Shown here: in pieces, positions 14,915-36,246 of the stretch | How the letters are laid out: the number at the start of each line of letters is the position of its first letter | Numbering within the stretch: the first letter of the stretch is position 1 | Source of the DNA: Brevibacillus laterosporus | Lineage (GTDB): Bacteria; Bacillota; Bacilli; Brevibacillales; Brevibacillaceae | Assembly (NCBI GenBank): GCA_007833815.1 | Contig: CP033464.1 | Location: forward strand, 3,094,001-3,158,000 | DNA: 64,000 nucleotides | Direction: 5' to 3' | Position numbers and translations under genes: made by a program | Notes under the pieces: model-generated | Database searches by the model: none | What the model saw: only the letters and a program-made list of their open reading frames with translations | What the model was told of the DNA's origin: nothing

Positions 14915-14940
14915 ACTAACAAATCAAACAAATTTAAAAG

Positions 14941-15691: not shown

Positions 15692-15754
15692 ATGGAAATT
15701 GAGATTCAGATTAACAGTAGCATGGATCCGTTCAAACAAGAAAATGAATTGTAG
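15692..15754 (+). CDS. 20-codon ORF between the T-boxes and brnQ
   Basis: ATG 15692 has a strong ribosome site (AAAGGAG, 8 bp spacing) and encodes a 20-residue peptide starting MEIEIQINSS and ending QENEL, acidic and with three Ile in its first eight residues. It stops 14 bp before the brnQ ATG, and its stop overlaps the brnQ ribosome site (TGAGGAG), so brnQ translation could be coupled to it. It could be a leader peptide, a small protein or a relic. No function is assigned. Confidence 0.45.
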   Translation: MEIEIQINSSMDPFKQENEL

Positions 15755-15768
15755 TGAGGAGAATAAAT

Positions 15769-17124
15769 ATGCAGAGGTTATCAAAAAAAGATTTACTGTT
15801 AGTTAGTTTTATGGTTTTTTCGTTATTTTTTGGAGCTGGTAATTTAATCTTTCCACCTTATTTAGGGCAATCAGCAGGGACTAACTTTTGGCAAGCAATG
15901 AGTGGTTTTATTATCTCTGCTGTTGGGCTTCCTATTTTGGGTGTTGTTGCAGTAGCGAAGTCAGATGGCCTACACCATTTAGCAAAACGAGTTCATCCTA
16001 TTTTTGCATTAATCTTCACCCTTCTTATCTATTTGTCGATCGGACCTTTTTTAGGGATTCCGCGTAATGGAAGCTTGGCCTTTGAAATGGGAGTAGCTCC
16101 TTTTTTACCAACAGAATGGCAACAAAATAGTTGGATTCTATTACTCTATACGCTGGTTTATTTTTTAATTGCCTTTTGGCTTTGTTTAAACCCTGATAAA
16201 CTATCTGATCGATTTGGAAAGGTACTAACACCATCCTTATTGATTTTACTTGCGGGCATTTTCATCTATAGCTTATTTAAACCTATGGGGTCTTTTGATA
16301 GTCCAATTGAAAGCTACGTACAAACTCCTTACTTCAATGGTTTTTTGGATGGTTACTTAACCATGGATACAATTGCAGCTCTTAATTTTGGTATTGTAAT
16401 TTCAGTGACTCTTAAGCAAAAGGGCATTAAAGAAAAGAAGTCATTGATCGCTACTACTGTCTATGCAGGATTGATTGCTGGAGCCATTCTGGTGTCAATT
16501 TATGTTTTACTGGGTTATCTGGGAGCAGCTAGTTCACACATGTTTGGAGTGGCGGAGAATGGTGCTCAAACTTTAACAAACGTGGTACTTTATTTGTTTG
16601 GAAAACCAGGAGTGATATTATTAGGTCTTGTATTTTCGCTGGCATGCTTAACGACGTCAGTTGGTCTAATTACCTCTTGCAGTCAGTACTTTGCAACATT
16701 GGTACCTAGAGTTTCATATAAAATGTGGGTAACAGTACTTGCCTTAATAAGTATGTTTTTTGCTAACATGGGATTGAGTGGAATTTTATCGATTTCAGTA
16801 CCGGTATTGTCTGCTATATATCCGTTAGCTATTACTCTGATTGTTCTTTCATTTGCGAATGACGTACTGAAAGGTGATTCCATTGTTTATGTTTGCAGTA
16901 TGTTATTTGTTGGAATTATCAGCATTACTGATGCATGTGGCCAAGTAGGATTTCATTCTCTTGCATTTGATAACCTACTGAGATATTTACCCATGCATGC
17001 AGAAGGTCTTGGATGGATTATTCCAGGGGTAGTAGGAGCACTTCTTGGATATGTAATCTCCTTTAGTAAAAAGAAGAAAGGAAGTACAGCACCTCAACTC
17101 ATAGAAAAAAATGATTCTTGCTAG
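15769..17124 (+). CDS. brnQ: Branched-chain amino acid transporter BrnQ (LIVCS family)
   Basis: A 451-residue polytopic membrane protein with about 12 helices that imports Leu/Ile/Val using a cation gradient. The N-terminus (VSFMVFSLFFGAGNLIFPP) is the family signature. ATG 15769 is chosen over an in-frame GTG at 15754 because TGAGGAG (15755-15761) is correctly placed for the ATG. It lies downstream of two Ile-type T-boxes, so import should rise when tRNA-Ile is uncharged. The C-terminus is short and basic (SFSKKKKGS). Confidence 0.93.
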   Translation: MQRLSKKDLLLVSFMVFSLFFGAGNLIFPPYLGQSAGTNFWQAMSGFIISAVGLPILGVVAVAKSDGLHHLAKRVHPIFALIFTLLIYLSIGPFLGIPRNGSLAFEMGVAPFLPTEWQQNSWILLLYTLVYFLIAFWLCLNPDKLSDRFGKVLTPSLLILLAGIFIYSLFKPMGSFDSPIESYVQTPYFNGFLDGYLTMDTIAALNFGIVISVTLKQKGIKEKKSLIATTVYAGLIAGAILVSIYVLLGYLGAASSHMFGVAENGAQTLTNVVLYLFGKPGVILLGLVFSLACLTTSVGLITSCSQYFATLVPRVSYKMWVTVLALISMFFANMGLSGILSISVPVLSAIYPLAITLIVLSFANDVLKGDSIVYVCSMLFVGIISITDACGQVGFHSLAFDNLLRYLPMHAEGLGWIIPGVVGALLGYVISFSKKKKGSTAPQLIEKNDSC

Positions 17125-17762: not shown

Positions 17763-18057
17763 TATGAAGGTCTCATACGCTATGTAACTGAAGAAGCACA
17801 AAGCCCATTTTTATTGATTAAAAAGATCAACTATTTCATATTTGTGTAATTTTCAATAAAAATCTTCGGGAAGGTGTAGATTTCTATGTGAATGAGCTAT
17901 TTGTCCTCAATAATTATCGCAAAAAAGGATTCGCAAAAAGGGCGTTGAAACAATGTTTTGCAAACAATCAAGGAAACTATATGGTTATGCAGATGAGTAA
18001 CAATAAACCAGCCATATATTCTGGCACCGATTATATGAAGAGGAAGGTGGCAAATAA
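17763..18057 (+). pseudogene. Decayed GNAT-family N-acetyltransferase
   Basis: Three short pieces in different frames read as one GNAT C-terminal region. First YEGLIRYVTEEAQSPFLLI (frame from 17763), then after a frameshift near 17822-17850 DFYVNELFVLNNYRKKGF (the acetyl-CoA loop pattern R-K-K-G-F-A) through NNKPAIY, then after a second shift near 18018 FWHRLYEEEGGK and stop at 18055-18057. At least two frameshifts and a missing N-terminus mean no functional enzyme. It abuts the NRPS start at 18063, so it may once have been co-transcribed with it. Confidence 0.7.
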
Positions 18058-18062
18058 ATACT

Positions 18063-21000
18063 ATGAAAGTCTTTAACAATAGAGTGATTGAACAAAAACA
18101 ATTTTGGCTTTCTAAACTTGGTGGTGAGTTCATCCCCTCTATGGTTCCCACAGACTATCCTTACGTAGGTCAAACCAAATGTAAGGCATCACTGCAATTA
18201 TCTATTGAACAGGATATTACAGACAGGCTGATTCAAGTTTGTAAAAATTCTGATGTGCTTGTGTATACCTTTTTGTTAGCCACGGCAAAAATTTGGCTAC
18301 ATAAATATACCCAACAAACAGAGGTTTGTATAGGCGCACCAAATCTTTCACCGACAACAAGACTGGTCCCTATCGTCTCTAATCCAGCTCCACATCTAGC
18401 CTCCAAACAATTTATTATGGATGTGAAACAGTCTCTTACGGATTCATACAAGCATCAGGATTTTCCTCTTCATCATATCTTTGAAGAGTTGGGAATTAAT
18501 CCTGAGGGCTCTGTTTCTCCATTTATTAATGTGGTTGTAGCACTTGATAGCATACACGATAGAGAGTTTATCGAGGCACAAGAGGTAGGCCTTATACTTC
18601 TTTTTTCAAAGACAGATAAAACGATAAATGTACATCTTCATTATGATAAATCGCTGTATAAGTCACAAACGCTGGAGCGATTTTTCACTCACTACAAAAA
18701 TATTCTTCGCACGATTTCAACAAATGTAACGATATCTTTGAGTGAAATTGAGCTGATGAGTGAAGATGAAAAAGTCCAGCTTGCTTCTTTTTCTCAAACA
18801 CTTGAATCATATCCGACAGATATGTTAGTACATCAAGTGTTTGAACATCAAGCTGAACGTCATCCAAATAAGGTAGCTGTGGTATACCAAGAGCAGCAGA
18901 TGTTAACATACCGACAACTAAACGAGAAAGCAAATCAATTGGCAAGGAACTTACGAGAAAAAGGTGTAGAGAAAGATGAAGTAGTTGCTCTGATGGTAGA
19001 GCGGTCCTTGGAGATGATGATAGGTATCTTAGGTATTCTCAAGGCAGGCAGTGCCTTTCTTCCCATCGATCCTGAGAATCCTTCAGAGCGCATAAGCTAT
19101 ATGCTAGCCGACAGTGAGTCTCGCTTTTTGTTAACGCACAAGAAACTAGGAAGCGATGTAGAGTTTGAGGGAGAAATAATTAGCCTAGATGGGGATGAGT
19201 TATATGTTGGTGATATGTCCAATCTTACACCGATTCAGACATCAGCTCATCTGCTATATGTCATCTATACCTCAGGTACAACTGGCAAACCAAAAGGTGT
19301 GATGGTAGAGCATCGGAACCTGATCAATTATGTAACCTGGTTCAGTAGGCAGGCTAGCATAACAGAAACAGACAGCACAATGCTCTTATCTTCCTATGCA
19401 TTTGATTTAGGATATACGAGTCTTTTTCCAGCACTGCTAAATGGATGTACCTTGCATATAGTGCCAAAAGATACATATCTGCACCCTGATAGCTTACTGA
19501 ATTACATCAAAGATCAGCAGCTCAGCTTTTTAAAACTGACACCGTCTCTTTTTTCATTACTAGTACAAGCAATTGACGGGTTACATACATCCGACATGAC
19601 AGCACTGCGTTTAGTCGTTTCAGGAGGAGAATCTATTCAGCCACTTGATGTTGCTAAGTTCCATAGTTACTATCCTGCTGTAACCATAATGAACCACTAT
19701 GGCCCAACCGAGTCAACAATTGGTACTCTGGCTATGCCAATTGAGTTTGACGAATGGGGTAGATTTGAAGAATGTCCAACTATCGGTACACCAATTCATC
19801 AAGCGGAAGTATTCATTCTAAATAAGGATTTGCAGTATGTTCCAATAGGGGTACCTGGTGAATTGTGTATTGCTGGAAAAGGGCTTGCACGTGGTTACCT
19901 TGGACAACCAGAGTTAACGAAAGAGAAATTTATAGCCCATCCATTTCAAGCTGGTGAACGACTTTATCGAACCGGAGATATGGCGCGATGGGATGAAGCG
20001 GGTACAGTTCAATTTCTGGGACGTATAGATCATCAAGTAAAAATTCGAGGATATCGCATCGAGATAGACGAGATTGAAAAGCATGTAATAAGTCATCCGT
20101 CGATCCATGAAGCGATTGTATTGGCTATGCCCAATGAGCAAAACGAAAATGAGCTGTGCAGTTATTATCTTTCTGATGAAGAACTGGGACAAGGTGAATT
20201 ACGTGAATTTCTCCAACGGAAAGTACCGGAGTATATGATCCCAATATTTTTCATCCGACTAAAAAATATCCCGCTCACTTCAAACGGTAAAATCAATCGC
20301 CATGCTTTGCCAAAACCAGATGCCCATGAACTTGCCCAGCTTTCTTACGTTGCTCCAGGCAGTGAGATGGAGGAGCAGTTGGTTTTCATTTGGAAAAATA
20401 TTTTGAAAAGAGAGTTGGTTGGGGTTACAGATAACTTCTTTCAATTAGGTGGTCATTCTCTATCAGCTATCAAACTGGCTCACCAAATCAGCAAAACATA
20501 TGGTACTCATATAACGCTGAAGGATATTTTTATGCATTCAACCGTGGGCAATCAAGTAAAAATGATTGCCCACGCAGAAAAAAGAATAACAAGAAAGATA
20601 GAAGTTTCTGAGCATAGAGAATATTATCCACTCTCTTCGATGCAACGCCGTTTGTTCTTACTTCATCAATTTGAAGGGGCAGAGACCGCATACAATATGC
20701 CTACCATCTGGCGTTTTACTGGAAACATAAACCTGGATAAGTTGGAGAAGGCATTTCAAACTCTCATTAATCGTCATGAAGCGCTACGTACTTCTTTTCA
20801 TGTGATTGATAGTGTTCCCATGCAACGGGTTCATACTCGTATAGATTTCACGCTATCTCTTCTAGAAGCTACAGAATTAGAAGAGAAGCAAGTTATTCAG
20901 TCATTCTTTCAAACATTTGATTTAGGTGTAGCTCCATTATTCCGTGCAGGTTTTGTGTCTCTGAACAATGATGAATGTCTTCTGATGATTGACATGCATC

Positions 21001-24000
21001 ATATTATATCTGATGGTGTCTCGATAAATATTCTTTTCGCAGAGCTGGAAAAAGCTTATCACGGTCAGAATCTGTCGCCGCTTACCATTCATTATAAAGA
21101 CTATGCTATGTGGCAAAATAAGTGGGAGCAATCGGAAGAGTACAAGCAGCAAAAACAGTTTTGGCTAACACAATTTTCTGATGAAATACCTGTGCTCAAC
21201 CTACCAACTGATTTTATGCGACCAAAACTCCAAAGTTTCAAGGGTGGGTTAATAACCGCCTCGTTATCTGGGGAACAGTTTGAGGCTGTAAAGCGACTCT
21301 GTCAGAAAACAGAGACTACTCTCTACATGTTTCTGCTTGCTACGTACAATATACTGCTCGCCAAATACAGCAATCAGGAAGATATTGTTGTAGGAACAGC
21401 AGTAGCTGGGCGGAGTGTAAGCGATGTGGAATCTGTCATCGGAATGTTCGTTAATACGGTGGCCATTCGAAATAAACCTATGCCAAGTAAAGCATTTGCT
21501 TCTTTTTTAGAAGAAGTAAAGCAACAAACCATTCAGGTGTTTAATCATCAGGATTATTCTCTCGATGACTTGGTGGAGAATCTTAAGTTAACTAGAGATA
21601 TGGGACGAAATCCACTATTTGACACCATGCTGACACTCCAAAGCTATGAGAAACAAAGCGTCGAGCTTGATGGAATTGCGATTCTACCAAACATGCAAGA
21701 TCATGATATTGCTAAATTTGATATAACCGTGGTTGCTGTTGAATATGAAGATCAATTACAAGTCTCATGGGAATTTTCCTCTGAACTGTGGAGGAAGGAA
21801 TCAGCAGAGAGGATGCTAAAGCATTTTATAACAGTAATGGAAGTAGCTGCTCGAGAACCCGAACGTACTATCGGCGAATTAGAAATACTGAGTCTAGAAG
21901 AAAAACACGAATTGTTATCCGTCAACAATCAAATCGCTATTTCTTATAACAAAGAACAAACCATTACTGATTTAATTGAGCAACAAGTTATTTTGCATCC
22001 TGATCACATTGCGGTTGTTTCAGATGGGGGGATACTACGTTATCGAGAATTGAATGAAGCAGCTAACCGGCTTGCCAGGTTTCTTCGTGCCAAAGGGGTT
22101 GAGCGTAATCAACCTATTGGGGTGATGATGGATTGTACTCCTGAGCTACTTATTAGCATTCTAGCCATAGTAAAAGCTGGAGGGGCGTATGTACCACTGT
22201 CGACGAATTATCCGAACGAACGAATTGAGTATATGTTGGAAGATAGTGAAGTGGGCTTGGTTTTAACCAAGCGAAATCTCCTTACCAATGTACGATTTGA
22301 TGGCGAGTGGATTTTCATGGATGAAATACGATTGGAAGGCAATGCAGACAATTTCGAGCGTGATACTAATGCAGATGACCTTCTGTATATCATCTATACC
22401 TCTGGTTCAACAGGTAAACCAAAAGGCGTGATGGTTCAGCATAAGGCCCTGCATCATTTTGTCACTGCTATGAATAAAGAATATTTGGGAACGATCAGCT
22501 ATAAAGACCGGTTTCTCCTTTCTACAGATATTTCATTTGACGTTAGTTGCTTTGAGATTTTTCAGGCGTTGACTAATGGTGGAACACTGGTCCTTTTTAA
22601 TGGGCATAAATTTGATGTCAAGCTTCTTGCTAAAACGATAGAGGAAGAAGAGGTAACTCTAGCTTATATACCACCTGCTCTCCTTACCCAGTTGTATGAG
22701 ACTATTCTTCTTTCGCCTGATGGTTTTGTCTTGAATAAAATGCTTGTTGGTGTTGAGCCAATAAAGGATGAGGTATTGGATCAATTTCTATCTCTGAATC
22801 CAGAAATGCTCATAGTCAATGGATATGGACCGAGCGAGGCTACCATCTGTTGTACAACCTACCGCTATGAAAAAAACGAGATAAGGGGTAAATATGTTCC
22901 AATTGGTAAGCCATTGGGCAATATGCAGATTTACATTCTAGATGCCCAGTGCCACCTTGTGCCAAGAGGTGTGATAGGTGAACTTTGGGTATCAGGTGAT
23001 GGATTATCCCTTGGTTATTGGAATCAAGAAAAGATGACAGAAGACCGTTTTAAGACGAACCCATTTCACCCACATACTCTGATGTACTGCACAGGAGATA
23101 AAGCAAGATGGGCAGAGGATGGAAATTTAGAGTTTATGGGACGAACGGATCATCAAGTAAAAATTCGTGGTTACCGTGTTGAGCTTGGCGAAATAGAGAC
23201 TCAATTGTTACGTCATCCTGAGATTGAAGCGGCACTAGTTATGACTAAGACGGATTCTTATGAATTTAAATATTTGTGTGCATACGTTGTTTTTCAAAAT
23301 AAAGAATGGAATTCAGCTCCAGATGCTACACAAAAATTGCATCAATGGCTTGCTACTTTTTTACCAGATTATATGTTGCCAAGCGTTTTTATCGCAGTAG
23401 ATGAATTTTCATTAACTCCTAATGGGAAAATAGATCGCAAAATTTTGCCTGAGCCAGATGGGAGCATTCATGTAAATGAACATAGTTACTCTGCACCGCG
23501 AAACGAATTTGAAGAGCAAATGGTGTTGTTGTGGGAGAAAATTCTTGAGGTTAAACCTATTGGTGTTATGGATAACTTCTTTATGCTAGGAGGTCATTCA
23601 CTCAAAGCCTTTGTGCTTGTTAGTCAGATCAACCAACGCTTTGGAATAAATCTTCCTTTGTCAGATTTGTTTAAGGCTCCTACTATTGCAGGTCTTTGTG
23701 AACATCTTCAGATGCAAGAGGCAAGTAAAGAGGAGACTGTTATCCTGCTTCAGCAAGGAAATCCTGATGTCCCACCACTATTCATTATTCATGGTCAGGG
23801 AGGGGGAGTCATTAATTTTTCTCATCTAGCACAAGCTATAGGAGGGGAGCGTAACGTTTATGGCATTCAAGCCGTTGGGTATGATGGCGAAGCAGAGATG
23901 TTGACAACAGTGGAAGAAATGGCCACACACTTTAATGCTTCTATTCGCCGAATTACGCCAACTATGCCTATCCAACTAGTTGGCTGGTCATTTGGAGGTC

Positions 24001-24554
24001 TGGTTGCTTATGAGATGACCAAACAATTAGAACAGAAGGGGGAGAAGGTAGAATTACTGGTATTGGTAGATTGTCTCCCGCTAACTGAAAAGGACCGTAT
24101 CAGTTTTGACCAACGTTATGAAAACTTGGATACTATTATTCAATACGCTCTTTATAACGGCATAGATCAAGAGGATTTAGCAGAATTAGGCGAAGAGGAA
24201 AAAATGAAATTTTGCTGGGAAGAGGCGCGCAAACAAAAACTATTTCCAGATGAAGTGTATGGACAGGCTTTGCTTCCTAAACTACGTATTCATGCAACAA
24301 ATGGCTTAGCAATACACAAATATCATCTTCTTGGGAAAATCGACTCTGATCTACACCTCTTTCTTGCTTTAGAATCGTCGGTTCAGCATCAATCCGCGAC
24401 GATCGCTGATATAGCACGCTGGAATGAATTTACCATGGGGAAAATACATTCAACATATATTACGGGCAATCATTATACTATGTTAGAAATGCCTCATGTC
24501 CAAAAGATGGCTACTTTACTTGGGGATTATATAAAAAGTAAAAAAATTGAATAA
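18063..24554 (+). CDS. Non-ribosomal peptide synthetase: half-C, A(Asp), T, C, A, T, TE
   Basis: A 2163-residue terminal NRPS. Domains: C-terminal lobe of a condensation domain only (1-225, no HHxxxDG); A1 (about 255-750; pocket residues read as D-L-T-K-V-G-H-I-G-K, the Asp code); T1 (Ser799 in GGHSL); complete C2 (H979-H980 to D984-G985, L-L type by context); A2 (about 1310-1790; pocket read as D-V-F-Y-L-G-G-I-C-K, unassigned); T2 (Ser1846); thioesterase (about 1885-2163, GWSFGG with Ser1976). ATG 18063 has an AGGTGG 12 bp upstream. It appears to add Asp and one more residue and release the product. Next comes a 280-bp AT-rich gap, then the partner NRPS. The missing C lobe leaves the entry step unexplained. 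Confidence 0.93.
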   Translation: MKVFNNRVIEQKQFWLSKLGGEFIPSMVPTDYPYVGQTKCKASLQLSIEQDITDRLIQVCKNSDVLVYTFLLATAKIWLHKYTQQTEVCIGAPNLSPTTRLVPIVSNPAPHLASKQFIMDVKQSLTDSYKHQDFPLHHIFEELGINPEGSVSPFINVVVALDSIHDREFIEAQEVGLILLFSKTDKTINVHLHYDKSLYKSQTLERFFTHYKNILRTISTNVTISLSEIELMSEDEKVQLASFSQTLESYPTDMLVHQVFEHQAERHPNKVAVVYQEQQMLTYRQLNEKANQLARNLREKGVEKDEVVALMVERSLEMMIGILGILKAGSAFLPIDPENPSERISYMLADSESRFLLTHKKLGSDVEFEGEIISLDGDELYVGDMSNLTPIQTSAHLLYVIYTSGTTGKPKGVMVEHRNLINYVTWFSRQASITETDSTMLLSSYAFDLGYTSLFPALLNGCTLHIVPKDTYLHPDSLLNYIKDQQLSFLKLTPSLFSLLVQAIDGLHTSDMTALRLVVSGGESIQPLDVAKFHSYYPAVTIMNHYGPTESTIGTLAMPIEFDEWGRFEECPTIGTPIHQAEVFILNKDLQYVPIGVPGELCIAGKGLARGYLGQPELTKEKFIAHPFQAGERLYRTGDMARWDEAGTVQFLGRIDHQVKIRGYRIEIDEIEKHVISHPSIHEAIVLAMPNEQNENELCSYYLSDEELGQGELREFLQRKVPEYMIPIFFIRLKNIPLTSNGKINRHALPKPDAHELAQLSYVAPGSEMEEQLVFIWKNILKRELVGVTDNFFQLGGHSLSAIKLAHQISKTYGTHITLKDIFMHSTVGNQVKMIAHAEKRITRKIEVSEHREYYPLSSMQRRLFLLHQFEGAETAYNMPTIWRFTGNINLDKLEKAFQTLINRHEALRTSFHVIDSVPMQRVHTRIDFTLSLLEATELEEKQVIQSFFQTFDLGVAPLFRAGFVSLNNDECLLMIDMHHIISDGVSINILFAELEKAYHGQNLSPLTIHYKDYAMWQNKWEQSEEYKQQKQFWLTQFSDEIPVLNLPTDFMRPKLQSFKGGLITASLSGEQFEAVKRLCQKTETTLYMFLLATYNILLAKYSNQEDIVVGTAVAGRSVSDVESVIGMFVNTVAIRNKPMPSKAFASFLEEVKQQTIQVFNHQDYSLDDLVENLKLTRDMGRNPLFDTMLTLQSYEKQSVELDGIAILPNMQDHDIAKFDITVVAVEYEDQLQVSWEFSSELWRKESAERMLKHFITVMEVAAREPERTIGELEILSLEEKHELLSVNNQIAISYNKEQTITDLIEQQVILHPDHIAVVSDGGILRYRELNEAANRLARFLRAKGVERNQPIGVMMDCTPELLISILAIVKAGGAYVPLSTNYPNERIEYMLEDSEVGLVLTKRNLLTNVRFDGEWIFMDEIRLEGNADNFERDTNADDLLYIIYTSGSTGKPKGVMVQHKALHHFVTAMNKEYLGTISYKDRFLLSTDISFDVSCFEIFQALTNGGTLVLFNGHKFDVKLLAKTIEEEEVTLAYIPPALLTQLYETILLSPDGFVLNKMLVGVEPIKDEVLDQFLSLNPEMLIVNGYGPSEATICCTTYRYEKNEIRGKYVPIGKPLGNMQIYILDAQCHLVPRGVIGELWVSGDGLSLGYWNQEKMTEDRFKTNPFHPHTLMYCTGDKARWAEDGNLEFMGRTDHQVKIRGYRVELGEIETQLLRHPEIEAALVMTKTDSYEFKYLCAYVVFQNKEWNSAPDATQKLHQWLATFLPDYMLPSVFIAVDEFSLTPNGKIDRKILPEPDGSIHVNEHSYSAPRNEFEEQMVLLWEKILEVKPIGVMDNFFMLGGHSLKAFVLVSQINQRFGINLPLSDLFKAPTIAGLCEHLQMQEASKEETVILLQQGNPDVPPLFIIHGQGGGVINFSHLAQAIGGERNVYGIQAVGYDGEAEMLTTVEEMATHFNASIRRITPTMPIQLVGWSFGGLVAYEMTKQLEQKGEKVELLVLVDCLPLTEKDRISFDQRYENLDTIIQYALYNGIDQEDLAELGEEEKMKFCWEEARKQKLFPDEVYGQALLPKLRIHATNGLAIHKYHLLGKIDSDLHLFLALESSVQHQSATIADIARWNEFTMGKIHSTYITGNHYTMLEMPHVQKMATLLGDYIKSKKIE

Positions 24555-24834
24555 ATGAGATAATATGTTTTACATTCAGTGTTTGTTTTAATAAAATGAA
24601 ATAGAATTAAAATTAAAATTTTAACAATATGGGATACTTTGTGACTGGTAAGGAAAAAGTACGTGGCTTAATAAAATAACATAACCTTACTTGATTTATA
24701 TAAAAATAAATCGTGACTCATATGATTAAGCCAGAAATCGCTAGCTTTACATACTAATAGGTTTGAAATAGAAATAGGAAAACTCGTTGTTTTTTTAGAA
24801 GTTATCTAATTACCAGAAAGTGAGGGAGATTATT

Positions 24835-27800
24835 TTGACCGTTACGCGTACGTATTATCCACTTTCACATTCCCAAAAACGGGTATGGTATATTGAGAAA
24901 ACATATCCTCACACCTCCATGTACAATATTGGAGGAGTCGTTCGAATGAATGGTTCTGTTAATATTACCTATCTTACTCAAGCTATTCAGATTTTTATAA
25001 ACAAGAATGATGGTTTGAGGCTACACATGCATGAGAAAGATAGCTTTGTAAATCAATACGTTGTAGAGTTGAATGATTTTTCCGTACCCTTCTATGACTT
25101 CAGTCATTCGATTCAAGCTGAAGAAGAGGTAATGCAATGGGCCGAGTCAGAGTTCAAAAAGCCATTTGTACTTGCTGATCATCCTTTGTTTTACTTTGCT
25201 ACCTTTCGCGTTCATGAGAAATATACAGGATATTTCATCAAATTGCATCATATCATTGCCGATGGCTGGTCTATCAATATTATGACCAACCAAATTGGGG
25301 AGATTTATCAAAAAATAAAAAATGGTGAGAAAATATCTAGAGAAGTTGAATACTCGTATCTCGATTATTTACAACAAGAACAAAAATATCTATCTTCCAA
25401 CCGTTTTGAAAAAAATAAGAAATACTGGAATGAAAAATTTCAAGCACTTCCTGAAAGCTTCTTGAGTAAGAGTTCAGATAAAGTGGAAGGGCATAGAAAA
25501 AGCATCGATCTTGATAAAGAATTATCGAGTCGTATTAATGAGTTTGCTACTGAGCATAATCTATCGCTAAGCTCACTGTTCATTATGCTTGTTTTACTTT
25601 ATCAATACAAAACACAGCAAACCAAAGATCAAATACTTGGTATCCCGGTTCTTAATCGTTCAGGGAATAAAGAGAAAAATATCTTTGGTATGTTTACTAG
25701 TTCCATGCCATTTCGCATGGAGTTAGAAGATACTGAAACACTGACTAGTTTATACAAGAGAGTTCATAATGAGATGTTAAGTAATTTTTTTCATCAAAGA
25801 TATCCGTATGATCTTCTAATTAGCAATTTAGAATTAAAGAAAAAGGGATATGATAGTCTCTTCCAAATTTGTGTGAATTACTACGGAACAAAGCTAGTTA
25901 ATGAGCTTGAGGGAATTAACATTGATAATCTAGAATTTTATAGTGGCTATCAGGCCTACTCATTACAATTGGTAATAAAAGAATGGTCAAGTGAGAATAA
26001 AATTACATTGTTCTATGATTATAAAACCAGTGACTATACAAATGAGCAGATCGAAGAAATACACAGTCGATTGATGTATGTTCTTGAACAGATGATACAA
26101 CAGCCAGAGAAGTCGATTAAGGAAGTCTCTCTTTTAAGTGATCGAGAGAAACATGATCATATCTATGGTCGAAATCAAACAGATGCGTTTTTCCCAAAAG
26201 ACAAGACTATACATCAGCTTTTTGAGGATCAGGTAGCGTTAACTCCAAATCGTGTTGCTGTACGCTTTCAAGATCAAACGTATACATATCATCAGCTTAA
26301 CGAACAAGCCAATAGATTAGCTCGTACGATTCGAGCTAAAGGCGTTAAGCCAGACCAACTAGTTAGTATTTATATGAGACATTCGTATGATATGGTTGTG
26401 GGGATTTGGGCTGTGTTAAAAGCAGGTTGTGCCTATGTGCCGATTGATCCTGATTATCCAACCGATCGCGTTGCATATATTTTGCAAAATAGTCAGACCA
26501 AGCTTTTACTATCAAATGTGGATGTGGATATAGAAGGCTTCAATGGAGAGGTTATCCGTCTTGATGATCCAACTACCTATGCATTAGAGTCACATAATCT
26601 CACGGACATAAACGAACCAAGTGATTTGGTTTATGTGATTTATACCTCGGGCTCTACTGGAAAACCAAAGGGAACGTTAATCGAACATAGAGGATTAATC
26701 AACTACATCCATTGGGCGAAACAGATGTACATACAGTCTCAGGATGAATCCTTTGCACTATATTCCTCTTTAGCTTTTGATTTAACAGTTACTTCCATTT
26801 TCGCTCCACTCCTAAATGGAAACGAAATCGTGGTTTATGTAGAAAATGGTTCTGAATTCGTTCTGGACACCATTCTTCGTGAGAATCGCGTCAACATACT
26901 TAAACTGACACCTGCGCATCTTGCGTTAATTAGTGACAGAGATAATCGACAATCGTCAATCAAACGATTCATCGTTGGAGGAGAAGACCTTAAAACATCG
27001 CTTGCTGCTAAAATCTATGAGAGTTTTGAGGGAAATATTTGCATTTACAATGAGTATGGCCCGACAGAAACAGTAGTGGGGTGTATGATCTATGAGTATA
27101 ATCCAGAAACAGATCGGACTGGGTCTGTGCCAATTGGTCGACCGATAAATAACGTGCAAATCTATCTACTAAATGATCAGCTACAACCCGTACCTGATGG
27201 TGTAGCGGGAGAGGTATATATTTCAGGTGATGGCGTTGCAAGAGGGTATTTGTCTAGAGAGGATTTGACACAGGAGCGTTTTTTGGACAATCCGTTTAGA
27301 CAAGGGTCTCGCATTTACAAAACTGGTGATCTGGCTAGAATGCTCGCCTCCCAAGATGTAGAGTATGTGGGAAGAATAGATCATCAGGTAAAAATGAAAG
27401 GATATCGTATTGAATTAGGTGAAATCGAGAACTGCTTGACCAGTTTCACATCTGTTAAAGAAGCGGTGGTCATTGATCGAGTAGAGGAGAACGGGTATAA
27501 GTATCTGTGTGCATATATAATTGCAGATGAAAAAATGTCCATTCCAGAAATTCGCCAAAAGCTAACACATCAACTGCCTTCTTATATGATTCCAACGTAC
27601 TTTGTTACAGTTGACAAATTGCCGTTAACATCAAATGGAAAAATTGATCGCAATCAGCTTCCCGACCCAATTGTTGATAACAACACTAATCGTGCAGGAG
27701 ATCAACTGCTAAATGATACAGAAGAAATATTGATGAAAGTTATAAAAGAGGTATTACAAATAGAAGAGGTAGGATTAGATTCAAATTTTTATTTTCTTGG

Positions 27801-29322
27801 TGGAGATTCGATCAAAGCCATTCAAGTAGTTGGTAAATTAAATCAGATGAATCTCGGGGCTACTGTGAGAGATGTAATGACATTTCCTGTGATTCATGAA
27901 CTTGCGGCTGCACTTGCAATGAATCAACAACCAACGGCTCCACAAACAACCATGAGTGGAACAATAAAGCCCACACCAATCACTTCATGGTTTTTCTCTC
28001 AGAATCTAACCGAGGCTTCACATTGGAATCAATCTGTCCTCCTTCAACTAAAAAAAGCATTTACTGCAGAACAAATAAGCAAGGTACTTACAAAAATTGT
28101 TCATCATCACGATACATTGCGACTTAACTATGATACGAAGGAAAATGTGCTGTTTTATAATGAAAAGCATCTAACTCATATGATTGAGATTGAAACGGTT
28201 GATCTGTCGGAAATTTCCTCCGAAAAACAGCTTGAAGAGCTGAAACAAATTGGGGAGCAAGTTAAAAGAAGCTTTGATTTAGAAGAGGGATTATTGTTTA
28301 AAGCCGTTTTGTTCCTGTTAGGAAAGGATGAGACTCGATTACTACTTACGGCACATCACTTAGTTGTAGATGGAGTCTCTTGGAGAATTTTATTAGAAGA
28401 TATGGGACAACTTTTCCGCGACTTGGAAGAAGGTCGTGATCTACATTTACCAGCAAAAACTCACTCTATGCAGAAATGGGCGGAAGAGCTAGACCATTAC
28501 AGTAAAACAGAAGCTTTGATGTATCAGGAATATTGGAAGGAAGCCTTGGATTCTCCCACATCAAATTCAAAAAGTGAAGTTGAAGAGCGCCTAGAAAATT
28601 GCGAGACACTGAGTGCTGAATTAACTAGAGAGTCTACCGACCAACTGTTGCTTAACGCCAATCGAGCTTACCAAACACATTCTCATGAGCTTATCATTAT
28701 GGGATTAAGTCTAGCAACCGCTGCTTTGACCAGTAAAACAGAAATCACGCTTGAATTGGAGGGTCATGGAAGAGAACAGTTGTTTTCTGATATAGATGTG
28801 ACTCGTACCATCGGGTGGTTTACTTCTATGTATCCACTTAGGTTACAGCTTCCTCAAGGGGATATCTCCAACGTCATTAAACATCTTAAGGAACAGATCA
28901 GAAAGGTACCTAATAAGGGGATAGACTTTGGAATTCTTACCTATCTGGCAGGGCAGTTCAGTCAATCTCAGGAAAAGCGTATTCGCTTTAACTTTCTGGG
29001 GGAAGTAGACAATCAATTAGACAATCAGTATCTTTCTTTGGCACATGAGGAAACGGGACCAGACATTTCTTTACAAAATGCAATGACTTGCTTAATCGAA
29101 ATTAACGCTATGATCAAAGAGAAAAGATTACAGCTTTCTCTTACGTACAATAAAAGTAAGCATAATCAAGTGGCCATGCAGCATTTTCTGGATAATATCA
29201 TCACTAATACAAGCCATATTCTCAATCATTGCTGTCAGTCAGAAGAGATACAAGATTTTACTCCTTCTGATTTTACTACCGTTAATCTCACACAAGATGA
29301 TCTTGATGATTTATTCAGCTAA
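24835..29322 (+). CDS. Non-ribosomal peptide synthetase: starter C, A(Asn), T, E
   Basis: A 1495-residue single module, ClbN-like in layout. The C domain (about 1-440; H138-H139 to D143-G144) begins YYPLSHSQKRVWYIEKTYPH, resembling the lipid-starter C domain of surfactin synthetase SrfAA. The A domain (about 455-960) pocket reads D-L-T-K-I-G-E-V-G-K, 9 of 10 to the Asn code. The T domain has LGGDS (Ser992), the form seen before epimerases. The E domain (about 1050-1490) has H1174-H1175, EGHGR and GWFTSMYP. The tail ends TQDDLDDLFS like a donor docking (COM) segment. Predicted product: N-acyl-D-Asn on the carrier. The start is TTG 24835 with GAGGGAG upstream; an earlier in-frame GTG overlaps that site. 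Confidence 0.93.
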   Translation: MTVTRTYYPLSHSQKRVWYIEKTYPHTSMYNIGGVVRMNGSVNITYLTQAIQIFINKNDGLRLHMHEKDSFVNQYVVELNDFSVPFYDFSHSIQAEEEVMQWAESEFKKPFVLADHPLFYFATFRVHEKYTGYFIKLHHIIADGWSINIMTNQIGEIYQKIKNGEKISREVEYSYLDYLQQEQKYLSSNRFEKNKKYWNEKFQALPESFLSKSSDKVEGHRKSIDLDKELSSRINEFATEHNLSLSSLFIMLVLLYQYKTQQTKDQILGIPVLNRSGNKEKNIFGMFTSSMPFRMELEDTETLTSLYKRVHNEMLSNFFHQRYPYDLLISNLELKKKGYDSLFQICVNYYGTKLVNELEGINIDNLEFYSGYQAYSLQLVIKEWSSENKITLFYDYKTSDYTNEQIEEIHSRLMYVLEQMIQQPEKSIKEVSLLSDREKHDHIYGRNQTDAFFPKDKTIHQLFEDQVALTPNRVAVRFQDQTYTYHQLNEQANRLARTIRAKGVKPDQLVSIYMRHSYDMVVGIWAVLKAGCAYVPIDPDYPTDRVAYILQNSQTKLLLSNVDVDIEGFNGEVIRLDDPTTYALESHNLTDINEPSDLVYVIYTSGSTGKPKGTLIEHRGLINYIHWAKQMYIQSQDESFALYSSLAFDLTVTSIFAPLLNGNEIVVYVENGSEFVLDTILRENRVNILKLTPAHLALISDRDNRQSSIKRFIVGGEDLKTSLAAKIYESFEGNICIYNEYGPTETVVGCMIYEYNPETDRTGSVPIGRPINNVQIYLLNDQLQPVPDGVAGEVYISGDGVARGYLSREDLTQERFLDNPFRQGSRIYKTGDLARMLASQDVEYVGRIDHQVKMKGYRIELGEIENCLTSFTSVKEAVVIDRVEENGYKYLCAYIIADEKMSIPEIRQKLTHQLPSYMIPTYFVTVDKLPLTSNGKIDRNQLPDPIVDNNTNRAGDQLLNDTEEILMKVIKEVLQIEEVGLDSNFYFLGGDSIKAIQVVGKLNQMNLGATVRDVMTFPVIHELAAALAMNQQPTAPQTTMSGTIKPTPITSWFFSQNLTEASHWNQSVLLQLKKAFTAEQISKVLTKIVHHHDTLRLNYDTKENVLFYNEKHLTHMIEIETVDLSEISSEKQLEELKQIGEQVKRSFDLEEGLLFKAVLFLLGKDETRLLLTAHHLVVDGVSWRILLEDMGQLFRDLEEGRDLHLPAKTHSMQKWAEELDHYSKTEALMYQEYWKEALDSPTSNSKSEVEERLENCETLSAELTRESTDQLLLNANRAYQTHSHELIIMGLSLATAALTSKTEITLELEGHGREQLFSDIDVTRTIGWFTSMYPLRLQLPQGDISNVIKHLKEQIRKVPNKGIDFGILTYLAGQFSQSQEKRIRFNFLGEVDNQLDNQYLSLAHEETGPDISLQNAMTCLIEINAMIKEKRLQLSLTYNKSKHNQVAMQHFLDNIITNTSHILNHCCQSEEIQDFTPSDFTTVNLTQDDLDDLFS

Positions 29323-29340
29323 GAAAGGAAACGATATAAA

Positions 29341-32300
29341 ATGAATGTTACAAAATCGTTGTGCCTACCCATGTTTTTGACATGGGTGCTTTCCTTTACA
29401 TTCTTGGTGTTTCCAGTGAATCAGATAAGTGCTGCTACTATGTTACTATCTACACAGGAAATCGAGAGAATGGAAGAATTCATTACCAAGCAAATGGATA
29501 CGTCGAAGATTCCAGGTTTACAAGTCATTATTGTTGAAAAAGACAAAACGGTTTACCAAAAAGGTTTTGGTTATGCTGATATAGTAAACAAAAAGCCTGT
29601 AACAATTGAAACGCTGTTTGAATTAGGATCAAATAGTAAAGCTATTTCTGGCCTTGCTATTTTACAATTGGCTGATAAAGGGCTGATTGATTTGAACGAT
29701 CCTGTGACAAAATATCTACCATGGTTGAACCTTTCCTATAAAGGAAAGGTTCAACCGATAACATTACGTCAATTACTTCATCATACGAGTGGAATTCCGT
29801 TCAAGTCGATAGGGTTCATTCCTGAGGGAAATGACAAGGGCGCACTTGAGAAGACGGTACGAACACTACTTACCCAAGAACTGAATCGTGAACCTGGTAC
29901 AAGGTACGAATATGCGACTATCAATTACGATGTGTTAGGGCTAGTGATCGAAAAGGTTACCAATCAATCTTTTGAGACATATATGACAGAAAATATCCTA
30001 GAAGCTCTTGATCTTCCACACACATATGTTGGCGAACAAAACGTTAACAAAGCTCAAATGGCTACTGGTTACAAGATGGGGTTTACGGAACCACAAAAAT
30101 ATAACCCGCCTAGCTTCCGGGGAAATACACCAGCTGGCTATATGATAAGTAACGGAATAGATATGGCTAGATGGATGCAAATACAAGTAGGCACAGTTGA
30201 CATAGGTGGCTTCAACCCAGCTCTAATTAAAGCTTCTCATGAGCCAGATCGAAAGGTGAGACCTAATGGCAGCGGGTCATCATATGCTACTGGTTGGGAG
30301 GTTTATCAAAAAGGGGATGGGGAACTCTCACACTCCGGGAGCAATCCAACATTTAGTTCGTTTATGGTGTTTCGTCCGACTGAGCAAATTGGGGTAGCTG
30401 TATTAGCAAATATGAACAGTGACTATACTGCTAATATTGGGCAGGGAATCATGAACTTGCTTATGGGAAAAGATGTACCTCCTATTTATTCAGACATGTA
30501 TAAAAAGTTAGATCAGTTGTCTTTTTCCATTATTTGCGTGCTTGTTCCAATTTGTTTGGCGATCCTTTTCTTACTAGGACGTATGTTTATTCAAACATTG
30601 AAGAAGCAACGAAAGTTTCAGATAACGGGGAAAGAGGTTATTGTGGGGCTGCTCTTTCATTTACTTTTATTGAGTTTATTCGCAATATCCTTGTTCTATT
30701 TACCAAATCTTCTATTTATGGAAATGACATGGGAGTTTATTGAAGTTTGGACTCCAGAGACTGTCATGATTGCTGTGTATGGAGTTGTGCTAACATTTGT
30801 TCTCTATTTTTGCTACTCGCTTCTTCTCTTGTTTTCTAAACAAAAACAGGAAAATATCTATTTTTCTTTGACGATGTTAAGCATTGTTAGCGGGTTTGGA
30901 AATGCTTTTATTATCTTCATTATTAATGAATCCTTTGCACGAACAAATAATTTGGTTAACGGTTTACTGTTCTACTTTACAATGGGGATTTTTATGTATG
31001 TTGTAAGTCAAAAGCTACTCCGTTCTCGTCTTGTTACCTTGACCAACCAATTAGTTTATGAAAAGCGGATGGAACTGGTTGAGAAATTACTTCAGACTAG
31101 CTATACCAGCTTGGAAGAGATGGAGCAAGGTCGTATTCAGGCCACACTCAACAATGACACAGAAGTGATCAGTCGAGCAATCAACGTTATTATTACGAGT
31201 GTGACTAATTTAATTACGCTAATTTGTTGCTTTATTTATCTGGGGGTTATGAACTTTTATGCGTTTGTACTTTCTCTGATTATTATCGGGCTTGTAGCAG
31301 CGTTTTACTATTTTATCGGACAAAAGGCAAACAAGCTGTGGGAAAAAACGCGTGATATTCAAAACGTTTTCTTCAAATTTATCACAGATCTTACTAGCGG
31401 CTTTAAAGAACTGACATTGCATAGAGGAAAACGTCAAGATTTTCATGTTGCAATTAAAGAGAGTTGTGCAGAATACCGTGACAAACGTGCTGAGGGCGAT
31501 CTGAAATTTGCTAACGTGTTTATCATTGGGGAATTACTGTTTATTATCGTAATTGGTTGTGTAGTGTTCATTTTTCCAGAAATTTTTAAACAGATGAATG
31601 CTGATATGCTTCGTAACTATGTATTTGTCTTCTTATACATGACAGGACCTGTTAACGGTTTATTAAATGGACTCCCACAAATCGTAATGATTCGAATTAG
31701 TTGGAAACGCATTAACAAAATGATCAAAGATTTAGATTTAGCTAAAGATCCAGAGCAAGAGAAAATAGAATCGGCACAGGACATCAAGGAGCCGATTAAG
31801 ATGATCGTAACCGATGTGTCTTATGATTATAAAAATGCAGATGATCGAAGCTTTAGTGTAGGACCTATTAATTTTGAGTTTGCGTCGGGAGAAATCATTT
31901 TTATTACTGGCGGAAACGGAAGTGGAAAATCAACACTCGCGAAGCTACTGACCGGTTTGTATGCTCCCAATAGAGGAGAAATTACCATAAACGGAGGCAA
32001 GGTCTCGCATGTGAAGCTAAATCAGTATTACTCTGCGATTTTTGGCGAGTTTCATCTATTTGATCGTCTATATGGTATTGATTCAGAGCGTCATGATAAA
32101 GAGATAAAACATTATCTTGAAGTCTTAGAATTACATGAAAAGGTGAAAGTGGAAAACGGGATGTTTAGCACAACTAGACTCTCAACTGGGCAAAAAAAGC
32201 GTCTTGCTCTTTTAATTACCTATCTCGAAGATCGCCCTATTTGCCTTTTCGATGAATGGGCTGCTGACCAAGATCCTGAATATAGACGCTTTTTCTATCA

Positions 32301-32436
32301 AGTATTATTGCCAGACATGAAACAAAAAGGGAAGTGTATTATTGCCATCACGCATGATGATCAATACTTCCACATAGCTGATAAAGTGATTAAGATGGAT
32401 GCGGGACAAATGGTGCAAGCTGTTGTAAGTGTTTAA
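29341..32436 (+). CDS. Fused membrane serine peptidase (ClbP/ZmaM-like) and ABC exporter
   Basis: A 1031-residue two-function protein. N-terminal signal/anchor (12-31); beta-lactamase-fold peptidase (about 37-380) with S97-N-S-K100, Y191-A-T193 where the fold usually has YxN, and H331-S-G; three helices (394-413, 433-454, 474-498) as in ClbP; then an ABC permease (about 505-790) and ATPase (about 820-1031) with GGNGSGKST near 857, LSTGQ near 947 and LFDEWAADQDP, the wording of SyrD/PvdE-type peptide exporters. It begins 18 bp after the NRPS, so is co-transcribed. In the ClbP/XcnG/ZmaM family the peptidase removes N-acyl-D-Asn from a pre-toxin outside the membrane. Inferred role: export and activation of the NRPS product, and self-protection. 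Confidence 0.92.
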   Translation: MNVTKSLCLPMFLTWVLSFTFLVFPVNQISAATMLLSTQEIERMEEFITKQMDTSKIPGLQVIIVEKDKTVYQKGFGYADIVNKKPVTIETLFELGSNSKAISGLAILQLADKGLIDLNDPVTKYLPWLNLSYKGKVQPITLRQLLHHTSGIPFKSIGFIPEGNDKGALEKTVRTLLTQELNREPGTRYEYATINYDVLGLVIEKVTNQSFETYMTENILEALDLPHTYVGEQNVNKAQMATGYKMGFTEPQKYNPPSFRGNTPAGYMISNGIDMARWMQIQVGTVDIGGFNPALIKASHEPDRKVRPNGSGSSYATGWEVYQKGDGELSHSGSNPTFSSFMVFRPTEQIGVAVLANMNSDYTANIGQGIMNLLMGKDVPPIYSDMYKKLDQLSFSIICVLVPICLAILFLLGRMFIQTLKKQRKFQITGKEVIVGLLFHLLLLSLFAISLFYLPNLLFMEMTWEFIEVWTPETVMIAVYGVVLTFVLYFCYSLLLLFSKQKQENIYFSLTMLSIVSGFGNAFIIFIINESFARTNNLVNGLLFYFTMGIFMYVVSQKLLRSRLVTLTNQLVYEKRMELVEKLLQTSYTSLEEMEQGRIQATLNNDTEVISRAINVIITSVTNLITLICCFIYLGVMNFYAFVLSLIIIGLVAAFYYFIGQKANKLWEKTRDIQNVFFKFITDLTSGFKELTLHRGKRQDFHVAIKESCAEYRDKRAEGDLKFANVFIIGELLFIIVIGCVVFIFPEIFKQMNADMLRNYVFVFLYMTGPVNGLLNGLPQIVMIRISWKRINKMIKDLDLAKDPEQEKIESAQDIKEPIKMIVTDVSYDYKNADDRSFSVGPINFEFASGEIIFITGGNGSGKSTLAKLLTGLYAPNRGEITINGGKVSHVKLNQYYSAIFGEFHLFDRLYGIDSERHDKEIKHYLEVLELHEKVKVENGMFSTTRLSTGQKKRLALLITYLEDRPICLFDEWAADQDPEYRRFFYQVLLPDMKQKGKCIIAITHDDQYFHIADKVIKMDAGQMVQAVVSV

Positions 32437-33339: not shown

Positions 33340-33503
33340 AGTTATGAATTTTTGCTGTTTTATTATTGTTAGAATCAATTTCATAAAGGCTTTTTCCAAA
33401 AATAATTAGACTATCCCTGGTATTATCCCCTTTGAGTAGACAGTGTAAAAAGCCCATCCACCTAGCGGTGGGTGCTACACTATCCTCGGAGGGGATTTTT
33501 CGT

Positions 33504-33842
33504 ATGGCTAAAAAAGGACAAACATTTCAACGATATACGATGGAATTTAAACAGAAGGCTATTGCTCTTTACGAACAAAAAGGGATCAGCTATGAAGCGA
33601 TTGCTAAAGAATTGGGAGTGCCTAGTCCTACTCAGATCAAGAATTGGGTCAGGAAATACCGAGACGGAGATGGTTTAGAGGATCAACGAGGTAAAACATC
33701 TAAAAGAGATAATCCTTTTATAGGGCGTCCACGTACAAAATTCACTAACGTGGAGGAGGAAAGAGATTATTTAAAAGCGCAGGTAGAATACTTAAAAAAG
33801 CGTTATCCAAATCTACACGGGGAGGGTGGGTTTCAAAAGTAG
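33504..33842 (+). CDS. IS3-family transposase OrfA (copy B)
   Basis: A 112-residue helix-turn-helix protein (IALYEQKGISYEAIAKELG, then PTQIKNWVRKY) with a coiled-coil tail (ERDYLKAQVEYLKKRY). ATG 33504 has GGAGGGGA upstream; the frame extends further 5' without support. It contains an in-phase A_AAA_AAG at 33794-33800, after which the -1 frame is open into OrfB. Confidence 0.9.
   Translation: MAKKGQTFQRYTMEFKQKAIALYEQKGISYEAIAKELGVPSPTQIKNWVRKYRDGDGLEDQRGKTSKRDNPFIGRPRTKFTNVEEERDYLKAQVEYLKKRYPNLHGEGGFQK
33794..33800 (+). promoter_or_regulatory. Programmed -1 frameshift site (A AAA AAG), copy B
   Basis: AAA at 33795-33797 and AAG at 33798-33800 are OrfA codons preceded by A. The -1 frame from 33800 reads ALSKSTRGGWVSKVARFAV and on into OrfB without a stop. 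Confidence 0.8.
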
Positions 33843-34693: not shown

Positions 34694-34767
34694 GCTTTTT
34701 TAATGCTGTCTACTTGACAGGGGTAAGTCCACCCTACGGGATCAATGCTGTTTTTTTGAAAAAATTA

Positions 34768-36120: not shown

Positions 36121-36246
36121 TGGGAGTCACCACCACCTCTTAAGTTTGGGTCGCACTTAACTTATTAGAGATTTGGGGAGGTACTCCTTTTTCTATGCTA
36201 AAAAACTCTTGAGCCCGTAGGGCTTTGATTTATGAAATTGATTCAA

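What the first reader, a model, noticed from the sequence alone, without database searches (positions are those of the whole stretch)
18063..32436. Compact N-acyl-D-Asn prodrug NRPS locus with its own peptidase-exporter
Seen directly: a starter-C/A/T/E module whose A pocket reads as Asn, a terminal NRPS with TE, and a fused SxxK serine peptidase plus ABC exporter 18 bp downstream. Established: in colibactin, xenocoumacin and zwittermicin pathways a C-A(Asn)-T-E module makes N-acyl-D-Asn, which a ClbP/XcnG/ZmaM peptidase removes at export. Inference: this locus uses that logic with only about three building blocks, so the released molecule after cleavage would be very small (Asp plus one residue, or a cyclised form). 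I do not know a described compound from such a minimal three-gene layout.
Basis: partly seen in the sequence, partly recalled or inferred. Interest (0 to 1): 0.88.

Follow-up and report, generated by a model that had tools for sequence, protein, structure and literature searches.

The report
Prodrug operon of a split assembly line
Three neighbouring genes in a relative of the soil bacterium Brevibacillus laterosporus look like the start, the release end and the export-and-activation step of an antibiotic-type peptide factory, and the missing middle of that factory may lie in a large gene cluster about one million bases away.

Summary
Gene 2 (24820-29322) is a starter-C/A(Asn)/T/E module. Gene 3 (29341-32436) is a ZmaM-type peptidase fused to an ABC exporter; it meets the eleven published positions tested. 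Gene 1 (18063-24554) is half-C/A(Asp)/T/C/A(?)/T/TE. The operon is intact and under purifying selection in 4 of 6 genus genomes.

The 'minimal three-block pathway' is not supported. Gene 1's first C domain is a C-lobe without the catalytic HHxxxDG in 4 of 4 orthologs, so the operon holds no fitting C domain to join acyl-D-Asn to Asp.

A syntenic NRPS-PKS cluster of about 60 kb, 0.91-1.03 Mb away in the three genomes where this can be measured, occurs in the same four genomes. Pfam finds no thioesterase in it and no starter C was placed there. One of its proteins opens with a C domain of the clade that accepts acyl-D-Asn elsewhere (0.996). Best reading: gene 2 starts, gene 1 ends and gene 3 exports and activates the product of that remote line. 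This is inferred; nothing chemical was tested.

The parts
18063..24554 (+). Gene 1: two-module NRPS, half-C-A(Asp)-T-C-A(unknown)-T-TE, 2163 aa
18063..18806 (+). half-C: C-lobe of a condensation domain only (model positions 183-442 of 442), no HHxxxDG; same in 4 of 4 orthologs; member of an 11-of-12 half-C clade (support 0.999)
18825..20312 (+). A1 domain, pocket DLTKVGHIG, read as Asp
20619..21917 (+). complete C domain (HHIISDG), LCL-type clade
21960..23447 (+). A2 domain, pocket DVFYLGGIC, substrate unknown; only in the 4 gene 1 orthologs among 111 A domains compared
23775..24500 (+). thioesterase domain (GWSFGG)
24820..29322 (+). Gene 2: starter-C-A(Asn)-T-E initiation module, 1500 aa, COM-type E tail (LTQDDLDDLFS)
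24850..26154 (+). starter C domain, prodrug subclade (10 members, support 0.995)
26221..27642 (+). A domain, pocket DLTKIGEVG, read as Asn
27952..29289 (+). epimerization domain
29341..32436 (+). Gene 3: S12 prodrug-activating peptidase fused to an ABC exporter, 1031 aa
29428..30480 (+). peptidase domain: S97/K100/Y191 and D-Asn-recognition residues E94, T193, N262, N335
30493..31020 (+). peptidase transmembrane region with P455, W464, W470, P472 (ClbP P451, W460, W466, P468)
31021..32424 (+). ABC half-transporter (TIGR01194)
17873..18048 (+). remnant of a GNAT acetyltransferase gene that is intact at this place in G003 and G005 and broken here and in G004

Best explanation
The operon is the head, tail and activation part of a split prodrug assembly line. 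Gene 2 puts a fatty acyl group on Asn, epimerizes it and hands N-acyl-D-Asn through its E/COM end to a DCL domain. That acceptor is probably not gene 1 but the ortholog of g4067915, in a NRPS-PKS cluster of about 60 kb (G000:C4:4039297-4098198) about 0.9 Mb away. The chain is finished by gene 1, whose N-terminal half-C receives it from a protein ending in a terminal C domain (g4039297), adds Asp and one more residue and releases the product with its TE. Gene 3 exports the acyl-D-Asn precursor and cuts off N-acyl-D-Asn at the outer face of the membrane. Shown by sequence: domain content, residue tests, synteny, selection, clade memberships, open ends. Inferred: that the two loci work together, the order of steps, and all chemistry. 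The gene 2/gene 3 part is better supported than the gene 1 part.
For: Gene 2 and gene 3 pass the prodrug tests. Gene 1's half-C is conserved in 4 of 4 orthologs, under purifying selection (dN/dS 0.15-0.19), with no N-lobe found nearby. In the window's genome 6 of 9 half-C proteins directly follow a protein with a terminal C, and 6 of 8 terminal-C proteins with an FxF-like tail are followed by a half-C; 12 of 14 E-terminal proteins are followed by a DCL start; gene 1 and gene 2 are among the exceptions. The 60-kb cluster is syntenic in G000, G003, G004, G005; for its last terminal C domain G001 and G002 show no hit above 46% identity at the cut-off used. Pfam finds no thioesterase in its 13 proteins in G000 and no starter C was placed there. 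Its g4067915 C domain and 3 orthologs fall in a 19-member clade (0.996) whose 13 members outside the two orphan clusters all come from loci with a fused peptidase (loci read). Typing the junctions and keeping the five matched neighbours gives one order, which begins at g4067915 and ends in a terminal C. Its PALP, ornithine-cyclodeaminase-like and aminotransferase proteins are 57-62% identical to ones in prodrug loci (only prodrug loci were in that comparison).
Against: The two loci are 0.91-1.03 Mb apart in three genomes, and NRPS pathways are usually clustered. Co-occurrence in 4 of 6 genomes follows the species tree: two unrelated C-domain proteins show the same pattern. Type balance is weak evidence: 1944 of 2000 shuffles also allow a complete order. 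Two of seven neighbour junctions inside the remote cluster do not fit, and the NRPS-to-PKS docking type there is my inference. Of 12 proteins ending in a C domain only 6 are followed by a half-C; a terminal C can also release a chain onto an amine (recalled), and the cluster has an S12 hydrolase, so it may not need gene 1's TE. A zwittermicin-like cluster (named by eye) in G000 and G004 also seems to lack starter and peptidase and has an acceptor of the same clade. In gene 3 the residue aligned with ClbP K235, part of the D-Asn network, is Met. Only G000's E ends were listed, from an incomplete hit list. The DCL clade has support 0.46 (1.0 for a 29-member version). No expression or metabolite data.
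Confidence: 0.5

Rival explanations
1. The three genes are a self-contained minimal pathway: acyl-D-Asn is joined to Asp-X on gene 1 by an unusual junction (E domain plus half-C, or gene 1's own C acting in trans), and gene 3 frees a small Asp-X product.
For: Operon order with TE, starter and exporter together, 18-bp spacing, all three genes constrained in all four genomes. One paper on thermoactinoamides speculates that a terminal E domain might catalyse a condensation (PMC7253712, passages).
Against: No C domain suited to a D-donor in the operon; half-C lacks HHxxxDG in 4 of 4; gene 1's complete C is LCL-type; 12 of 14 E ends listed in the genome are followed by a full DCL start.
Confidence: 0.2
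2. Gene 1 is an independent dipeptide synthetase that initiates with Asp (half-C being vestigial), and only gene 2 and gene 3 serve another assembly line.
For: A truncated, probably inactive C domain stands before the first A domain of thermoactinoamide ThdA, which starts with Leu (PMC7253712, passages). In G139 an NRPS with a partial TE match lies directly upstream of a C-A-T-E gene and a fused peptidase, the same order. Only 6 of 12 proteins ending in a C domain are followed by a half-C.
Against: The half-C belongs to the clade whose other members in this genome mostly follow a terminal-C protein (6 of 7); the one other half-C protein here with no NRPS before it, g3726487, is outside that clade.
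Confidence: 0.2
3. In this strain and G004 the operon mainly serves the zwittermicin-like NRPS-PKS cluster (G000:C4:2869541-2904903), which seems to lack its own starter, TE and peptidase.
For: Its first NRPS C domain is in the acyl-D-Asn acceptor clade; my HMMs found no C-A-T-E gene, TE or fused peptidase in the 89 kb (G000) and 72 kb (G004) read around and including it (no Pfam scan); G004 has one fused peptidase at the cut-off used.
Against: An ortholog (84%) was found only in G004, not in G003 or G005 (G005 is in 80 contigs), which keep the operon under constraint (G003-G005 dN/dS 0.11-0.18).
Confidence: 0.1

Closest known systems
ZmaM / EdeA / PamJ-type prodrug-activating peptidases (ClbP family, S12)
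   Same: SxxK and catalytic Tyr, D-Asn-recognition residues, TM2-TM3 linker tryptophans, fused ABC half-transporter
   Different: sits in a three-gene operon without the rest of an assembly line; 46-56% identity to the fused peptidases found outside this group
N-acyl-D-Asn initiation modules of zwittermicin/edeine/colibactin type (C-A(Asn)-T-E)
   Same: starter C, Asn pocket, T, E, COM-type tail; prodrug subclade 0.995 with modules of other loci
   Different: no DCL acceptor in the same locus
Edeine- and zwittermicin-like clusters of Bacilli (cluster names by eye and recall)
   Same: the remote 60-kb cluster has acyltransferase, PALP, ornithine-cyclodeaminase-like and aminotransferase genes like those of prodrug loci
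   Different: there head, body and peptidase are in one cluster; here they are apart
Thermoactinoamide synthetase ThdA (PMC7253712, passages)
   Same: truncated N-terminal C domain before the first A domain
   Different: ThdA is reported as an initiation protein; no prodrug peptidase is mentioned in the passages seen

Membership tests
N-acyl-D-Asn prodrug-activating peptidase (ClbP/ZmaM family) | Catalytic Ser, Lys, Tyr (ClbP S95, K98, Y186) | tested here: met
   S97, K100, Y191 in 21 of 21 fused peptidases aligned; ClbP alignment
N-acyl-D-Asn prodrug-activating peptidase (ClbP/ZmaM family) | N331 strictly conserved, S/T at 188, E92, H/N at 257 (PMC9889268, passages) | tested here: met
   N335, T193, E94, N262; N335 absent from 6 of 6 S12 paralogs of the genome (4 have another residue, 2 are gapped there)
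N-acyl-D-Asn prodrug-activating peptidase (ClbP/ZmaM family) | Transmembrane domain with W460, W466 and prolines 451, 468 | tested here: met
   W464, W470, P455, P472; profile aligns to full-length ClbP 7mdc through the TMD
N-acyl-D-Asn prodrug-activating peptidase (ClbP/ZmaM family) | K235, which stabilises E92 in ClbP (not listed as conserved in the passages seen) | tested here: not met
   the aligned residue is Met by the alignments, position counted by eye; not a defining position in the passages seen
N-acyl-D-Asn prodrug-activating peptidase (ClbP/ZmaM family) | Cleavage of N-acyl-D-Asn from a precursor | not testable with these tools
   needs enzyme assay
C-A(Asn)-T-E prodrug initiation module | Starter-type C, Asn-type A pocket, terminal E | tested here: met
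C-A(Asn)-T-E prodrug initiation module | Loads a fatty acyl group onto Asn | not testable with these tools
   needs in vitro loading or metabolite data
Self-contained NRPS assembly line | A catalytic C domain of fitting type at every junction | tested here: not met
   none between gene 2 (E) and gene 1 (half-C); six-frame search around 4 of 4 loci
Edeine- or zwittermicin-type cluster | Precursor genes (diaminopropionate or hydroxy/aminomalonyl) beside the NRPS | tested here: not met
   none among the neighbours of the operon scanned or shared with relatives; such genes are present in the remote clusters

The most novel reading that the evidence does not exclude
The operon is a stand-alone prodrug cassette (starter, terminator, exporter-activator) that plugs in trans into remote assembly lines, in this strain and G004 possibly two of them (the 60-kb cluster and the zwittermicin-like cluster), with half-C domains acting as sockets for the terminal C domain of the protein before them.
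Probability: 0.2. Interest if true: 0.8.

Novelty: new variant of a known kind. Interest (0 to 1): 0.6.

Why it matters
If the split model holds, cluster-based genome mining misreads such loci: it predicts a tiny product here and a cluster without a start elsewhere. It would give two testable rules (the C-domain clade that accepts acyl-D-Asn; half-C as partner of terminal C) for joining distant NRPS genes, a handle on an export-activated compound of the B. laterosporus group that my searches did not find described, and possibly a portable prodrug cassette.

Tried and rejected
Assembly or strain artefact for the half-C: rejected, since it is the same in 4 of 4 orthologs and no N-lobe fragment was found (one 151-aa frame near the IS3 genes gave a weak C-lobe hit, E 0.0013).

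Stand-alone C domain G000:C4:3395786 as a dedicated partner: it co-occurs in the same 4 of 6 genomes, but lies between large polyketide-synthase-like genes and an ammonia-lyase-like gene (named by eye, no family search), which fits the basiliskamide-type cluster of B. laterosporus (PMC3940840, passages). Another terminal-C protein outside the 60-kb cluster has the same 4-of-6 pattern, so co-occurrence alone was dropped as an argument.

Zwittermicin-like cluster as the only partner: rejected because no ortholog was found in G003 and G005 at the cut-off used.

Ortholog of gene 1 in other Bacilli: the best hits of its half-C outside the group are 24-28% identical among the proteins compared; none found.

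A2 substrate: the code DVFYLGGIC is not in the paper library and has no close relative among 111 A domains; left open.

S12 hydrolase at G000:C4:4043296 as a prodrug peptidase: rejected, it lacks the N331 and S/T188 equivalents (paralog L006).

Own errors: the first peptidase table held a wrong ORF for the 1.30-Mb locus and missed L084; replaced. In one search three E domains (g1295377, gene 2, g4050640) print as C because the E clade was drawn too narrowly; I counted them as E.

Literature: searches gave no description of this locus or of a split prodrug NRPS among the rows listed (for example 25 of 1,095 papers and 15 of 141); the library holds open-licence papers only.
Full report
Setting. 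The window is C4:3094001-3158000 of a 5.76-Mb genome (G000). Six genomes of the genus are held.

What is there. Gene 1 (18063-24554) reads half-C-A-T-C-A-T-TE, gene 2 (24820-29322) C-A-T-E, gene 3 (29341-32436) peptidase-ABC. Gene 2 to gene 3 spacing is 18 bp; gene 1 to gene 2 is 265 bp here and 82-129 bp in the three orthologs. The 265-bp stretch occurs once in the genome. Core motifs are intact in 4 of 4 orthologs: A3 and A10, carrier serines, TE GWSFGG, HHxxxDG of gene 2 C and E and of gene 1's complete C.

Constraint. dN/dS between the window and the three orthologs is 0.10-0.15 for gene 1 or gene 2 whole and 0.08-0.10 for gene 3; by domain it spans 0.05-0.25, half-C 0.15-0.19 (Nei-Gojobori, dS above 1 in many comparisons with G003 and G005, so those ratios are rough). 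For the closer pair G003-G005 (dS 0.19-0.22) the ratios are 0.18, 0.16 and 0.11.

Gene 2. Among 135 complete C/E domains, its C lies in a starter clade of 12 (support 1.0) and, with more loci added, in a 10-member prodrug subclade (0.995). Its E domain lies in the E clade of 30 (1.0). The pocket DLTKIGEVG also stands next to a DLTKVGHIG module in the cluster at 3656446, which I take, from recall, for loloatin with its Asn-Asp pair. The A-domain tree puts gene 2 A with other DLTKIGEVG domains (9 members, 0.997) and gene 1 A1 with other DLTKVGHIG domains (6 members, 0.999).

Gene 3. PMC9889268 (passages) names residues that set prodrug peptidases apart from other S12 enzymes. The eleven of its positions tested are met in the window protein. 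Across 21 fused peptidases E94, S97, K100, Y191, S/T193, N262, N335, P455, W464 and W470 are kept in 21 of 21 and P472 in 20 of 21; none of 6 S12 paralogs of the genome has Asn at 335 (four have another residue, two are gapped there). Against: K235 of ClbP, which steadies E92, aligns with Met here (counted by eye). The fused peptidases form a clade apart from the paralogs (0.999); ClbP and XcnG were not in that tree. Against solved structures the best match is Protein flp (4gdn, a 342-residue soluble chain), slightly ahead of ClbP; the family profile aligns to full-length ClbP through the transmembrane part.

How unusual the layout is. Fused peptidases were found in 15 of 40 genomes of the order and in 26 of 399 sampled genomes of the class (at most 2 candidates per genome scored, so a lower bound), 32 loci in the latter. 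Four are this operon. The other 28 were read; none showed only these three genes, though several stretches end inside the cluster.

The broken link. Gene 1's first C matches only model positions 183-442 of 442 in 4 of 4 orthologs, and a six-frame search of 30 kb of the window and of the fetched ortholog stretches found no N-lobe. Its complete C is LCL-type. So nothing in the operon is suited to join acyl-D-Asn to Asp. Half-C domains are a family here: 11 of 12 collected form a clade (0.999). Of 9 half-C proteins in G000, 6 directly follow a protein ending in a terminal C; the exceptions are gene 1, g3726487 (outside the clade) and g4039297. Seen from the other side, 12 proteins end in a C domain and 6 of them are followed by a half-C; of the 8 whose tail I read as FxF-like, 6 are. 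Seven terminal-C proteins looked at in other genomes also have FxF-like tails (two of these, in G142 and G192, are not adjacent to their half-C protein). Of 14 E-terminal proteins in G000, 12 are followed by a DCL start; the exceptions are gene 2 and g4044922 (with E assignments; the DCL clade has support 0.46, a 29-member version has 1.0).

Where the link may be. The N-terminal C domain of g4067915 (G000:C4:4067915-4075681) and its three orthologs lie in a 19-member clade (0.996). Thirteen other members come from loci with a fused peptidase (within about 25 kb); in 11 of these 13 a separate C-A-T-E gene was also seen in the stretch read, the misses being L087 and L028. Some of the 13 are close relatives of one another. 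The remaining two are the zwittermicin-like cluster of G000 and G004. The g4067915 cluster is syntenic in G000, G003, G004 and G005. Its distance from the operon is 0.91, 0.97 and 1.03 Mb in G000, G004 and G003; in G005 the two loci lie on different contigs. Pfam finds no thioesterase in its 13 proteins in G000 (g4067915 scanned as two overlapping pieces) and no starter-type C was placed there. It holds KS, KR, DH, an acyltransferase, PALP, ornithine-cyclodeaminase-like and class III aminotransferase proteins, a luciferase-like monooxygenase inside one A domain and a methyltransferase inside another. With the junction types I assigned, it opens with a DCL domain and ends with a terminal C in 48 of 48 allowed orders. 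Five of its seven neighbour junctions fit; keeping those five leaves one order, starting at g4067915 and ending at g4039297. The clade result is a partial independent check of that start, because the order was not derived from it; three of the eight proteins open with a DCL domain. The match of type counts is not evidence by itself: 1944 of 2000 shuffles also allow a complete order.

Reading. Gene 2 offers the E end that g4067915 lacks, gene 1 the half-C and TE that g4039297 lacks, gene 3 the export and activation that the cluster seems to lack (its S12 hydrolase does not have the prodrug residues). On this model the released product holds on the order of a dozen residues rather than two (A domains counted by HMM; some are split or divergent). 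In G139, a genome of another family of the class, an NRPS with a partial TE match, a C-A-T-E gene and a fused peptidase stand in this same order at the edge of a larger NRPS-PKS cluster.

Limits. Everything is comparative. The four genomes are close relatives, so co-occurrence is weak. The remote cluster might release its product through its terminal C domain or S12 hydrolase without gene 1. In G000 and G004 a second orphan acceptor exists; that cluster was typed with my own HMMs only and named zwittermicin-like by eye and recall. Junction typing was done only for G000, from the C hits, which were incomplete (136 candidates, 111 scored), supplemented by my own HMM on the stretches fetched.

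GNAT gene. Upstream of gene 1 a GNAT gene is intact in G003 and G005 and broken in the window and G004. N-acetyltransferases are self-resistance genes in edeine and paenilamicin producers (EdeQ is cited in PMC9889270, reference list; PamZ in the abstract of PMC9054821, search listing), so it may have been one here; not tested.

Noticed in passing
window 14934-15194 and 15251-15508 (+): Two T-box leaders in tandem (Rfam RF00230, 100.8 and 114 bits) upstream of a BrnQ branched-chain amino acid transporter gene (15754-17124).
   Followed up: no
window 59233-59472 (-): A third T-box leader (98.7 bits).
   Followed up: no
window 33432-38346: About 5 kb with IS3 genes and two copies of a DDE/DUF772 transposase around a phospholipid/isoprenylcysteine methyltransferase-like gene (36247-37020), absent between the same flanking genes in three relatives; looks like a composite insertion.
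   Followed up: partly
window 17873-18048; L018:5917-6423; L020:6059-6577: GNAT acetyltransferase gene before gene 1, intact in G003 and G005, broken here and in G004.
   Followed up: partly
G000:C4:2869541-2904903; G004:C1:91968-127309: Zwittermicin-like NRPS-PKS cluster (named by eye) in which my HMMs found no acyl-D-Asn module, thioesterase or peptidase-exporter.
   Followed up: partly
G000:C4, nine half-C proteins (for example 2899117, 3882597, 4050640, 5214417): Six of nine half-C N-termini directly follow a protein that ends in a terminal C domain with an FxF-like tail; may be a docking type of its own.
   Followed up: partly
G000:C4:4075948-4083711: This protein seems to start with two condensation C-lobes in a row before its first A domain.
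   Followed up: no
L025:13378-17847, L026:900-3983 (G000:C4:1.295-1.321 Mb): A second prodrug locus in the same genome with its own C-A(Asn)-T-E, fused peptidase, DCL acceptor and TE protein.
   Followed up: partly
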